From an uncultured Bacilli bacterium (GTDB lineage Bacteria; Bacillota_I; Bacilli_A; RFN20; CAG-449), in NCBI GenBank assembly GCA_947629415.1, contig CANRDP010000008.1:1-49689 (forward strand): a stretch of DNA of 49,689 bases, in the 5' to 3' direction. Every line of letters starts with the position of its first letter. Position 1 is the stretch's first letter. The translations under genes were made by a program, and so were the position numbers. Of the stretch, positions 18,319 through 21,987 are shown piece by piece. Below the pieces are notes generated by a model that saw nothing but the letters and a program-made list of their open reading frames with translations, made no database searches and was not told the DNA's origin.

Positions 18319-19563
18319 ATGGAAAGAATTATTTTTTGTATTGATGTCCGTTCTTTTTACGCTTCTGTTGAATGTGTCGATCGCGGCTTAAATCCAAATA
18401 CTACACCTCTGGTAGTTTTAGATAAAGAGCGAGGCCCCGGATCCATTTGCTTAGCGGTCTCTCCTTATTTAAAAAAATTAGGTATTCCCTCCAGAATTCG
18501 TCGTTATGACTTACCCCATCTTCCCAATATTATCTATGCACGGCCGCGAATGTCCCGTTATATTGATGTCAGTGCCAAGATTGTTGCCACTTATTTAGAT
18601 TTCGTTGCTCCAGACGATTTACATGTCTATTCGATTGATGAAAGTTTTTTGGATGTCACTCATTATCAAAAACTATATAAATGTTCTCCGATCGAGTTGG
18701 CAAAGAAAATAAAACAAGAAATTTATAATCGTTTTTCTTTATCTTTATCCATAGGTATTGGACCAAATCTTCTTTTAAGTAAAATTGCTATGGATATTGA
18801 AGCCAAAAAGAAAAATGACGGTATTGCTTATTGGACGAAAGAAGATATCGAAACAAAATTATATCCTATCACTCCATTATCCGATTTTTTTGGTATCGGA
18901 AAGCGCATGGAAAAAAAATTAAATGCTTTAGGGCTATATAAAATCGGTGATATAGCAAATTACCCCAGAGAAAAATTAGTAAATTATTTCGGCGTAATCG
19001 GTGCAGAATTATATGATCATAGTCATGGCATTGATTTATCTAGAATTCAAGAACCTTATAAAATAAGTGAAAAATCCATTTCATCCTCACAAATTTTCTT
19101 TCGTGATTATAATTATACGGAAATTAATTTAATTCTTATGGAAACATTAGATGATCTTTTATATCGATTGGATAAAAGAAATGCGTTATGCAAAACCATT
19201 GCATTATCCATCGGATATAAAAATTCGCTTCTTCCGAATTTTCATAAACAAGGCTCTTTGATTCATCCTACCGCATCTTTTCAGGAAATTTATTCTGTTC
19301 TTATCTCTTTCTTTTCACTGGCATCTTCAAAATATCCGATTCGTTCTATGGGCATTCGATTGTCCGGATTAATTCCTGAAAATGCCGTCCCTTTGGATTT
19401 GTTTTATTCTCCGGATGAAATTGCCAAAGAAAGGACTTTAAGAAGAGTAACCAGTAAAATCAAAGAAAAATATGGCGCAAATGCAATTTTAAGAGCATCC
19501 TCTTTATTATCTCATTCCACCATAAAAGAACGGCACAACTTAATCGGAGGTCATAAGAAATGA
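18319..19563 (+). CDS. Y-family DNA polymerase (UmuC/UvrX type)
   Basis: IDVRSFYASVEC, AVSPYLKKLGI, VYSIDESFLDVT, SIGIGPNLLLSKIAMD, GIGKRMEKKLNALGL. Confidence 0.92.
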   Translation: MERIIFCIDVRSFYASVECVDRGLNPNTTPLVVLDKERGPGSICLAVSPYLKKLGIPSRIRRYDLPHLPNIIYARPRMSRYIDVSAKIVATYLDFVAPDDLHVYSIDESFLDVTHYQKLYKCSPIELAKKIKQEIYNRFSLSLSIGIGPNLLLSKIAMDIEAKKKNDGIAYWTKEDIETKLYPITPLSDFFGIGKRMEKKLNALGLYKIGDIANYPREKLVNYFGVIGAELYDHSHGIDLSRIQEPYKISEKSISSSQIFFRDYNYTEINLILMETLDDLLYRLDKRNALCKTIALSIGYKNSLLPNFHKQGSLIHPTASFQEIYSVLISFFSLASSKYPIRSMGIRLSGLIPENAVPLDLFYSPDEIAKERTLRRVTSKIKEKYGANAILRASSLLSHSTIKERHNLIGGHKK

Positions 19564-19868
19564 AAAAAAGTCATCATCGTGGCATGGAAAAATGGATTCC
19601 TTTTGATTCTTTGACGCCTTTTAAAGAAAAAATCGAAGAAGAAAAAAGAAAAAAGAAAAAAAAGGAGTGTATTTTAAGTGAAGATCAAATATCGGAAATA
19701 AATCAAACACTTCTTTCTTACCATAATCAAATAATTACGATTGAATATTTGAAAAACAATGAATTTTGCCAGATAAACGGGAGAATTTCACAAATTAATA
19801 TACAAGAACAATATCTTAAAATAAACTCCGAAAAAATTCTTTTTTCCGAAATAAAAAATATTTTTTAA
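19560..19868 (+). CDS. YolD-like family protein
   Basis: Overlaps stop of UmuC-like gene (aaATGA); H-x-R-G-M-x-K-W motif and C-terminal YolD-like fold. Confidence 0.75.
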   Translation: MKKSHHRGMEKWIPFDSLTPFKEKIEEEKRKKKKKECILSEDQISEINQTLLSYHNQIITIEYLKNNEFCQINGRISQINIQEQYLKINSEKILFSEIKNIF

Positions 19869-19901
19869 ATTTTTCCAATAAAACATCCATGATAATTTGT
19901 T

Positions 19902-19992
19902 TATATTATGGTGGCAGGAAACTGCTGCCGGGACGATGAGGTTTTTTAATCCCTTTACTTACCATAATAATTTTCTCCTCATCGTCTTTTTT
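19902..19992 (+). promoter_or_regulatory. Candidate structured RNA leader with terminator upstream of TrmH-family methyltransferase gene
   Basis: GGTGGCAG-GAAA-CTGCTGCC hairpin; ATTATGGT/ACCATAAT pairing; GACGATGAGG/CCTCATCGTC stem followed by TTTTTTATTT. Confidence 0.55.
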
Positions 19993-20008
19993 ATTTGAAG
20001 GAGTTTTC

Positions 20009-20728
20009 ATGGATTTTAAATCTTATAAAAAAGACGCTTTTTATTCTTATACTCTAGGAGCTTTCCCTACTTTAGAATTGATACATAAGCATCCGGAAAC
20101 TTTATTAAAAATTATTCTGCATTCTTCTTTTCAAAATGAAGATGTTCTAAAACAAATACAACAAATGACATCTCATTGCGAAATTCAAATAAATGATCGT
20201 TTGATTTCCCGTTTATCACCAAAAGAAAATTGCTATGTTCTTGGAATATTCAAAAAATATACCATGGAATTAAATGAAAAAGAAAATCACATTTTATTGG
20301 TAAATCCAATGAATATGGGTAATTTTGGCACCATTGTTCGTAGTGCCTTAGGTTTTAACTTCCAAAATATTGCTCTTCTTACTCCTTGTATTGATATTTT
20401 CGATCCAAAAGTTTTAAGAGCATCCATGGGTAGTTTCTTTCATGTATCTATACAAATATTTTCATCCTTTGAAAATTATAAAAAAACTTTTCCAAATCAT
20501 GAAATTCATAGTTTTATGTTGCAAGCCAAACAAAATTTACAACACTATACCTTTCCAAAAGAAAAAGCAGTGACTTTTGTATTTGGCAATGAATCCTCTG
20601 GATTGGATGCTTCTTATCTTGATGAAAATTCACTTATTATTTCTCATGAAAATAATATTGATTCTTTAAATTTGCCGACAGCCGTCGGTATAGCTTTATA
20701 CGAATATCAAAAACAAAAACATTCATGA
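20009..20728 (+). CDS. TrmH/SpoU-family RNA 2'-O-methyltransferase
   Basis: NPMNMGNFGTIVRSALGF, LRASMGSFFHV, FVFGNESSGLD, SLNLPTAVGIALYE. Confidence 0.9.
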   Translation: MDFKSYKKDAFYSYTLGAFPTLELIHKHPETLLKIILHSSFQNEDVLKQIQQMTSHCEIQINDRLISRLSPKENCYVLGIFKKYTMELNEKENHILLVNPMNMGNFGTIVRSALGFNFQNIALLTPCIDIFDPKVLRASMGSFFHVSIQIFSSFENYKKTFPNHEIHSFMLQAKQNLQHYTFPKEKAVTFVFGNESSGLDASYLDENSLIISHENNIDSLNLPTAVGIALYEYQKQKHS

Positions 20729-20769: not shown

Positions 20770-21987
20770 ATGGATGTTTTAGCGCTTCAAAAACAAATGA
20801 AGGAACAAAATATTAAAACTTTGCGATTTGTTTGCTTTGATATTTTAGGTCATCCTCATTATTTATATATTCCGAGTTTCAAAATAGCCGATGTTCTGGA
20901 TCATAATATTCCTTTTGATGGTTCGTCCATTCCCGGATTCAGCACTTTATCTTCTTCCGATTTATACTTAAAACCCGATTGGAAAACGATACAACTATTA
21001 CATTTGGATTCTTTTCCCATTTTCAATGTTTTTTGTTCTATTGAATGTGAAGACGGTGCATTTCTTCATGATGGAAGGTATCGATTGGAACAATATTTAA
21101 ACGATTTAAAGCAAGAAGGTATACAAAATGTAAAATTAGGATTGGAAACCGAATTTTATTTATTGAATCAAAAAGAAAAATTAGACACATCATCCTATTT
21201 TGATTTGCCACATACTTTCGCCAATAATTTTTATCAACGGTTATTAAAAAAATTGGAAAACACTCCCATTCATATTCGATCCTTTCATCACGAAGTCGGT
21301 CCCGGGCAATATGAATTGAATTATGATGCCGATTCTGCAATAAAAACAATCGAAAACGAAACAATACTTTTGGAAGTTTTAAAGAAAACCGCGGAAGAAG
21401 AGAAATTAAAAGTTATTTTCTCTCCGAAGATGGAAATGGGAATTCCGGGAAGCGGATTACATATGAATTTATCTATTTGGAATGATCAAAACATGATGTT
21501 TTGTGAAAATTCCATTTCGTTATTTGCCCGCTATTTCATCAATGGTGTATTATCCAAAGCGAAAGAAATTACTTTATTTTCCAACACAACAAAGAATTCC
21601 TATCGTCGTTTAAAAGACGGATTGGAAGCCCCGAGAAAAATTTGTTACGGCAAAAAAAATCGTTCCTCTTTAATTCGTATTCCTATGTTTAAAGAGGCAG
21701 AAAGTGCACGAATTGAAATCCGCAACGTCGATTTATCTTGTTCGCCTTATTATTTGATTTTGCTCATTTTAGCGGCAGGATTGGAAGGTGTCAAGGAAAA
21801 GAATTTAACACATAAAGAATTATTTACTTCCGCGTATGAAACTTCATTAGAAGAATATGACGAATTACCTTTATCTATAGAAGATGCAATACATTTTACA
21901 GAACAAAGTATTTTTGTTAAAAAAGTTCTCGGGGAATCTACTTTATCTTCTTATCTTCATGCCATTAAAAAGCAAAATAATTTATAA
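20770..21987 (+). CDS. glnA: Glutamine synthetase (GSI-like, somewhat short)
   Basis: FDGSSIPGF, HHEVGPGQYELNYD, GSGLHMNLSIW, NSYRRLKDGLEAP, NRSSLIRIP, ARIEIRNVD. Confidence 0.88.
   Translation: MDVLALQKQMKEQNIKTLRFVCFDILGHPHYLYIPSFKIADVLDHNIPFDGSSIPGFSTLSSSDLYLKPDWKTIQLLHLDSFPIFNVFCSIECEDGAFLHDGRYRLEQYLNDLKQEGIQNVKLGLETEFYLLNQKEKLDTSSYFDLPHTFANNFYQRLLKKLENTPIHIRSFHHEVGPGQYELNYDADSAIKTIENETILLEVLKKTAEEEKLKVIFSPKMEMGIPGSGLHMNLSIWNDQNMMFCENSISLFARYFINGVLSKAKEITLFSNTTKNSYRRLKDGLEAPRKICYGKKNRSSLIRIPMFKEAESARIEIRNVDLSCSPYYLILLILAAGLEGVKEKNLTHKELFTSAYETSLEEYDELPLSIEDAIHFTEQSIFVKKVLGESTLSSYLHAIKKQNNL

What the first reader, a model, noticed from the sequence alone, without database searches (positions are those of the whole stretch)
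19902..20009. Switch-like RNA leader upstream of a TrmH-family RNA methyltransferase
Plus strand has GGTGGCAG-GAAA-CTGCTGCC, an 8-bp stem (two G-U pairs) closed by a GNRA loop. Outside it, ATTATGGT (19904-19911) can pair with ACCATAAT (19961-19968), enclosing the hairpin. A 10-bp stem GACGATGAGG (19932-19941)/CCTCATCGTC (19977-19986) runs into TTTTTTATTT. The outer stem and the terminator stem cross, so they are mutually exclusive or form a pseudoknot, which is the usual logic of a riboswitch with a terminator platform. The SD and start of the methyltransferase follow immediately. I could not match it to a riboswitch class I know. A simple terminator for the umuC-yolD operon is the conservative alternative; TATATTAT at 19903-19910 could also be a -10 box, which would remove the outer stem from a transcript starting there.
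Basis: partly seen in the sequence, partly recalled or inferred. Interest (0 to 1): 0.62.

Follow-up and report, generated by a model that had tools for sequence, protein, structure and literature searches.

The report
Conserved small RNA upstream of trmH
Next to an RNA-methylating enzyme gene in an uncultured gut Bacillota there is a short structured RNA, conserved as tightly as a tRNA gene in a sister species and recognisable in a second genus, and it looks like a previously undescribed small RNA that sits beside the enzyme gene rather than a riboswitch for it.

Summary
The RNA is real, but it is probably not a riboswitch. The 5' hairpin (19910-19929) and the 10-bp stem running into T6 (19932-19941/19977-19992) are present and together fold far better than shuffled sequence (z = -5.5). 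A sister species carries the same RNA before its trmH: 62 of 62 nt are identical from the second hairpin to the U-tract (surrounding DNA ~69%), and the 5' hairpin differs in sequence but keeps its 8 bp and tetraloop. Longer identical blocks in the sampled genomes were only tRNAs and RNase P. A second genus has a diverged copy at the same site (yolD | RNA | trmH). Both helices show compensatory changes (10 pairs; no shuffle of 500 reaches the covariation score). The long loop keeps UCCCUUUACUUAYCA. Rfam and more distant genomes show nothing. The proposed outer stem ATTATGGT/ACCATAAT is not conserved. In the second genus the RNA has its own terminator, with a separate promoter-like site before trmH, so it reads as a free-standing small RNA. 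In the window's genus the second hairpin is an intrinsic terminator in front of trmH and may attenuate it. Best guess: a narrowly distributed small RNA acting through its C-rich loop; no target was found.

The parts
19900..19909 (+). TTTATATTAT, aligned with the -10 region of the sister species (TTTATATTATAAT); promoter in the window itself is unclear because about 9 bases present in the sister are missing between it and the hairpin
   Evidence: alignments; sequence; no promoter consensus match on + strand here
19910..19929 (+). 5' hairpin, 8 bp with GAAA tetraloop; sister species AGTAGTGA-TACG-TCACTACT; second genus GTAGA/TCTAC
   Evidence: 4 pairs with changes on both sides
19932..19941 (+). 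5' arm of long-loop hairpin 2
   Evidence: helix 2: 6 pairs with changes on both sides across two genera
19942..19976 (+). 35-nt loop holding the motif UCCCUUUACUUAYCA (19950-19964)
   Evidence: identical in sister species, motif identical but for one C/U in second genus
19977..19986 (+). 3' arm of hairpin 2
19987..19992 (+). U-tract: hairpin 2 is an intrinsic terminator in the window's genus (not in the second genus, where a separate terminator follows)
19931..19992 (+). 62-nt block identical in the sister species (flanking alignments about 69% identical)
20009..20728 (+). trmH/SpoU-family RNA methyltransferase, neighbour of the RNA in every genome that has it
18319..19563 (+). Y-family DNA polymerase (umuC-like), upstream neighbour, absent at this site in the sister species
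19560..19868 (+). YolD-like protein, upstream neighbour, absent at this site in the sister species

Best explanation
A small structured noncoding RNA gene (about 85 nt in the window's genus, about 130 nt with its terminator in the second genus) sits between yolD and trmH. Transcription most likely starts at the 5' hairpin. The RNA consists of a 5' hairpin and a second hairpin of 10-12 bp that presents a 35-41-nt loop with the invariant single-stranded sequence UCCCUUUACUUAYCA. The most likely action is in trans, through this C-rich loop, by base pairing with mRNA or by binding a protein, as in Gram-positive UCCC-motif sRNAs. In the window's genus hairpin 2 also ends in a U-tract directly before trmH, so trmH there would be transcribed by read-through of the small RNA's terminator. 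Shown: structure, conservation, synteny, covariation. Inferred: transcription start, free-standing nature, trans action. Target unknown.
For: 62/62 identical nt in the sister species against about 69% identity of flanking DNA; in 1.04 Mb x 0.78 Mb of the two genomes only five tRNA matches and RNase P gave longer exact matches. Block ends coincide with the hairpin foot and U-tract. Homologues in three genomes of a second genus plus one cut by a contig end, all beside trmH and, where visible, after yolD. Covariation: 10 pairs with double changes, score 0.53 against 0.26 +/- 0.05, 0 of 500 shuffles, slid controls at most 0.18. -10-like hexamers end 6 nt before the hairpin in G002 (TATAAT), G007/G004 (TGCTTTAAT with TTGAAA at -35) and, weaker, G012 (TGTTTTGAT). 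In the second genus the RNA is followed by its own terminator hairpin with T6, then a TATAAT box just before trmH. RNA present where umuC-yolD is absent. UCCC loops are a documented SD-binding motif of Gram-positive sRNAs (PMC4132741, PMC3861533).
Against: No transcription data. No target: the loop does not pair better than shuffled loops with 1,294 and 753 translation starts, and complements of the seed are not enriched there. Always beside trmH, which would fit a cis role. The promoter in the window itself is poor. The copies of G007 and G004 are nearly identical, so only four independent sequences exist.
Confidence: 0.55

Rival explanations
1. Cis-acting transcription attenuator of trmH: the long-loop hairpin is a terminator whose formation is controlled by a protein (perhaps TrmH itself), a ribosome or another RNA bound to the loop.
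For: In G000 and G002 only 16-22 nt separate the U-tract from the trmH start codon, with no promoter, and in G002 no same-strand gene lies upstream, so trmH depends on read-through. The RNA is always next to trmH.
Against: In the second genus hairpin 2 has no U-tract and trmH has a separate terminator and -10 box in front. No conserved anti-terminator pairing found.
Confidence: 0.25
2. Metabolite riboswitch with the outer-stem switch proposed by the first reader.
For: Outer stem lowers the energy of truncated transcripts in the window; the second genus has a 6-7 bp GUAGAG/CUCUAC pairing between the 5' arm and the loop, so a competing 5'-strand/loop helix is not fully excluded.
Against: Not kept in the sister species (2 of 8 pairs broken, none compensated); helices of 6-8 bp between such AT-rich stretches are near chance by a rough estimate; separate promoter-like site of trmH in the second genus; no Rfam riboswitch match.
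Confidence: 0.05
3. Leader-peptide attenuation: ATG 19937 starts MRFFNPFTYHNNFLLIVFFI*, whose translation would melt the terminator (as with some rRNA methyltransferase genes such as ermK, from general knowledge).
For: The frame is open in both congeners and Phe-rich (sequence).
Against: No usable SD (GGA is 2 nt from ATG, behind a hairpin); codon third positions show no freedom (0 changes in 62 nt); no equivalent frame is evident in the second genus; the C-terminus differs between congeners.
Confidence: 0.05
4. Ordinary intrinsic terminator of umuC-yolD.
For: It does end in a U-tract and lies after yolD in the window.
Against: Present in G002 without umuC-yolD; loop and 5' hairpin conserved; 35-nt loop is atypical; the second genus uses another terminator.
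Confidence: 0.07

Closest known systems
UCCC-motif trans-acting sRNAs of Firmicutes (Listeria LhrC, S. aureus RsaE/RNAIII, B. subtilis FsrA)
   Same: short RNA with a 5' hairpin and a terminator-type hairpin, unpaired UCCC with U-rich flank in a loop (PMC4132741)
   Different: no sequence or covariance match in Rfam; one copy per genome; loop of 35-41 nt with a 15-nt conserved motif; no SD-target enrichment found
Leader-type transcription attenuators (riboswitches, T-box, protein-binding antiterminators)
   Same: terminator hairpin in front of a gene in the window's genus
   Different: no conserved anti-terminator; in the second genus not in the trmH leader
Structured ncRNA motifs found by comparative analysis of intergenic regions (e.g. 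PMC11109978, PMC8632094; titles and abstracts seen)
   Same: conserved structured intergenic RNA with covariation and unknown role
   Different: restricted to two genera of one family of uncultured Bacilli; not found in Rfam and its motif not found in the papers searched

Membership tests
Metabolite riboswitch | match to a described aptamer class | tested here: not met
   Rfam 15 cmscan of window and homologous loci: no match at gathering score, only chance matches at E up to 10
Metabolite riboswitch | conserved mutually exclusive structures controlling the downstream gene | tested here: not met
   outer stem broken in sister species; no shared alternative fold; trmH has its own -10-like box after the RNA in the second genus
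Metabolite riboswitch | ligand binding | not testable with these tools
   needs in-line probing
Intrinsic terminator / attenuator | GC-containing stem followed by U-tract | tested here: met
   stem 19932-19941/19977-19986 then T6 in G000 and G002; not in the second genus
Intrinsic terminator / attenuator | regulated read-through | not testable with these tools
   needs a termination assay
UCCC-motif trans-acting sRNA | unpaired, conserved C-rich seed in a loop | tested here: met
   UCCCUUUACUUAYCA in the loop of all complete copies
UCCC-motif trans-acting sRNA | own promoter and terminator | tested here: inconclusive
   sequence-level promoters at fixed distance in G002 and the second genus, poor in the window
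UCCC-motif trans-acting sRNA | complementary SD-region targets | tested here: not met
   no enrichment over shuffles in 1,294 and 753 starts; coverage of the genomes partial
Terminator of umuC-yolD only | depends on presence of the upstream operon | tested here: not met
   RNA present in G002 where umuC-yolD is absent

The most novel reading that the evidence does not exclude
A new riboregulator in which the RNA is bound by the adjacent TrmH/SpoU methyltransferase (as substrate mimic, guide or autoregulator) through the invariant UCCCUUUACUUAYCA loop, which would explain why RNA and enzyme gene stay together across two genera.
Probability: 0.12. Interest if true: 0.7.

Novelty: new member of a known kind. 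Interest (0 to 1): 0.42.

Why it matters
It adds a small, strongly constrained RNA family to a poorly studied, uncultured group of gut Bacilli, with an unusual large-loop hairpin and a stable link to an RNA-methyltransferase gene of unknown substrate. If the RNA and the enzyme work together, it would offer a handle on what this methyltransferase modifies.

Tried and rejected
Rfam at gathering and relaxed thresholds: nothing. Phages, plasmids and viral contigs by BLAST and exact patterns: only chance-like matches; the viral contigs with the loop motif lack the hairpins; the five viral contigs matched the stem arms only and were not examined further. One scan of 84,980 species genomes for GACGATGAGGTTTTTTAATCCC: only the sister species. 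Covariance models over 279, 395, 273 and 39 genomes: nothing beyond the two genera; the next-best hits are at chance E-values and those looked at lack the motif or stems. Antisense to a translation start (the minus strand reads like SD-ATG, MVSKGIKKPHRP...): 12 codons shared but the remainder diverges in the two congeners, and no gene start examined in either genome matches. Antisense to mnmG (81% over 31 nt in G002) rejected because mnmG of the window's genome differs there. Pairing to own trmH mRNA is weak, -9.5 kcal/mol. First extraction of upstream regions missed the second-genus copies because those loci were not turned; redone.

Full report
OBSERVATION. The two hairpins described are in the sequence: GGTGGCAG-GAAA-CTGCTGCC at 19910-19929 and GACGATGAGG/CCTCATCGTC at 19932-19941/19977-19986 followed by T6. 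RNA folding of 19895-19996 returns both, at -30.4 kcal/mol and z = -5.5. The outer stem is one base off (ATTATGGT is 19905-19912) and shares GGT with the 5' hairpin, so the two compete. It appears only in truncated transcripts. Rfam 15 has no match.

NEIGHBOURHOOD. Pfam places a Y-family polymerase (18319-19563), a YolD-like protein (19560-19868), a SpoU-type RNA methyltransferase (20009-20728) and a glutamine synthetase-type enzyme (20770-21987) in a row. The methyltransferase is below every NCBIfam equivalog cut-off, so its substrate is not assigned.

SISTER SPECIES. The genome G002 (L046, CANQTY010000052.1, uncultured Bacilli bacterium isolate Lapin-008__bin59) has the element directly before its trmH orthologue (69% amino-acid identity). 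From 19931 to 19992, 62 of 62 bases are identical, while flanking DNA aligns at about 69%. The 5' hairpin has a different sequence (AGTAGTGA-TACG-TCACTACT) but the same register, 8 bp and a tetraloop; four pairs change on both sides. Comparing 1.04 Mb of the window's genome with 0.78 Mb of G002, longer exact matches than this block were only tRNAs and RNase P RNA; one other 62-nt match was equal in length. The conserved block begins at the foot of hairpin 2 and ends with the U-tract, which argues for constraint on an RNA rather than a random gene-conversion tract.

SECOND GENUS. After turning the minus-strand loci, three genomes of another genus of the family (G012, G007, G004) show a diverged copy between yolD and trmH, and a fourth (G010) a copy cut by the contig end. 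The copies share a 5' hairpin GTAGA/TCTAC, a stem of about 11 bp and a loop of roughly 37-41 nt with AAUUCCCUUUACUUAUCAAAA. On the four-sequence alignment, 89.7% of cells pair, 10 of 20 pairs have changes on both sides, and no shuffle of 500 reaches the covariation score. Synteny is thioesterase, FNT-like protein, umuC, yolD, RNA, trmH. In G002 umuC-yolD are missing but the RNA is there. The trmH tree does not join the two genera, so the RNA is probably ancestral to the family and lost in the third congener G001 and in the other two genera; transfer is not excluded.

DISTRIBUTION. Covariance models searched over the order (279 and 273 genomes) and class (395) and, with laxer filters, 39 nearest genomes found no other member. 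The exact motif over 395 genomes of the class hit only members and one chance site. Viral, phage and plasmid collections gave no homologue.

MECHANISM. In the second genus the RNA has no U-tract after hairpin 2. A separate hairpin with T6 follows, then TATAAT a few bases before trmH. A -10-like hexamer ends six bases before the 5' hairpin in G002, G007/G004 and, weaker, G012. This reads as a free-standing small RNA gene. In the window's genus hairpin 2 is the terminator, and trmH follows with no room for a promoter, so trmH must depend on read-through there; this is inference from sequence. A 6-7 bp pairing between the 5' arm and the loop in the second genus is of the size roughly expected by chance in such sequence.

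ACTION. The unpaired UCCCUUUACUUAYCA resembles the UCCC loops by which Gram-positive sRNAs bind SD regions (PMC4132741, PMC3861533). I tested this: the loop does not pair better than shuffled loops with 1,294 and 753 translation starts, and seed complements are not enriched. No target conserved between the genomes was found. Trans action by base pairing is therefore a hypothesis by analogy; protein binding, including binding by TrmH, is equally open.

VERDICT. A genuine, apparently undescribed, narrowly distributed structured RNA family; small RNA more likely than riboswitch; function not established.

Noticed in passing
L046:2, L111:47, L113:47, L126:44, L125, L121:314; L092:8227: A 27-28-base sequence TTTGTTGCACTTAGATTAATAATTAACC recurs, mostly near contig ends, in the sister genome and once in the sampled part of the window's genome; probably a repeat that breaks the assembly.
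   Followed up: no
window 18319-19868: The umuC-yolD pair lies between the FNT-like gene and trmH in the window and in the second genus but is missing at the same site in the sister species G002.
   Followed up: partly
L105:5192 and L116:6902: Another 62-base exact match between the two genomes (GAAATCAAAGGCATAAAGATATC...), as long as the RNA block; not identified.
   Followed up: no
window 19937-19999: An open frame MRFFNPFTYHNNFLLIVFFI on the plus strand starts inside hairpin 2; no ribosome-binding site, no codon-like variation.
   Followed up: partly
window 20770-21987: A glutamine synthetase-type protein of 405 aa that falls below all NCBIfam equivalog cut-offs.
   Followed up: no
L129:1500-1600: A short ORF MSKKDFIILLLFIIIFSLILIILEI in G611 next to a terminator-like hairpin resembles a small hydrophobic type I toxin (seen).
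   Followed up: no
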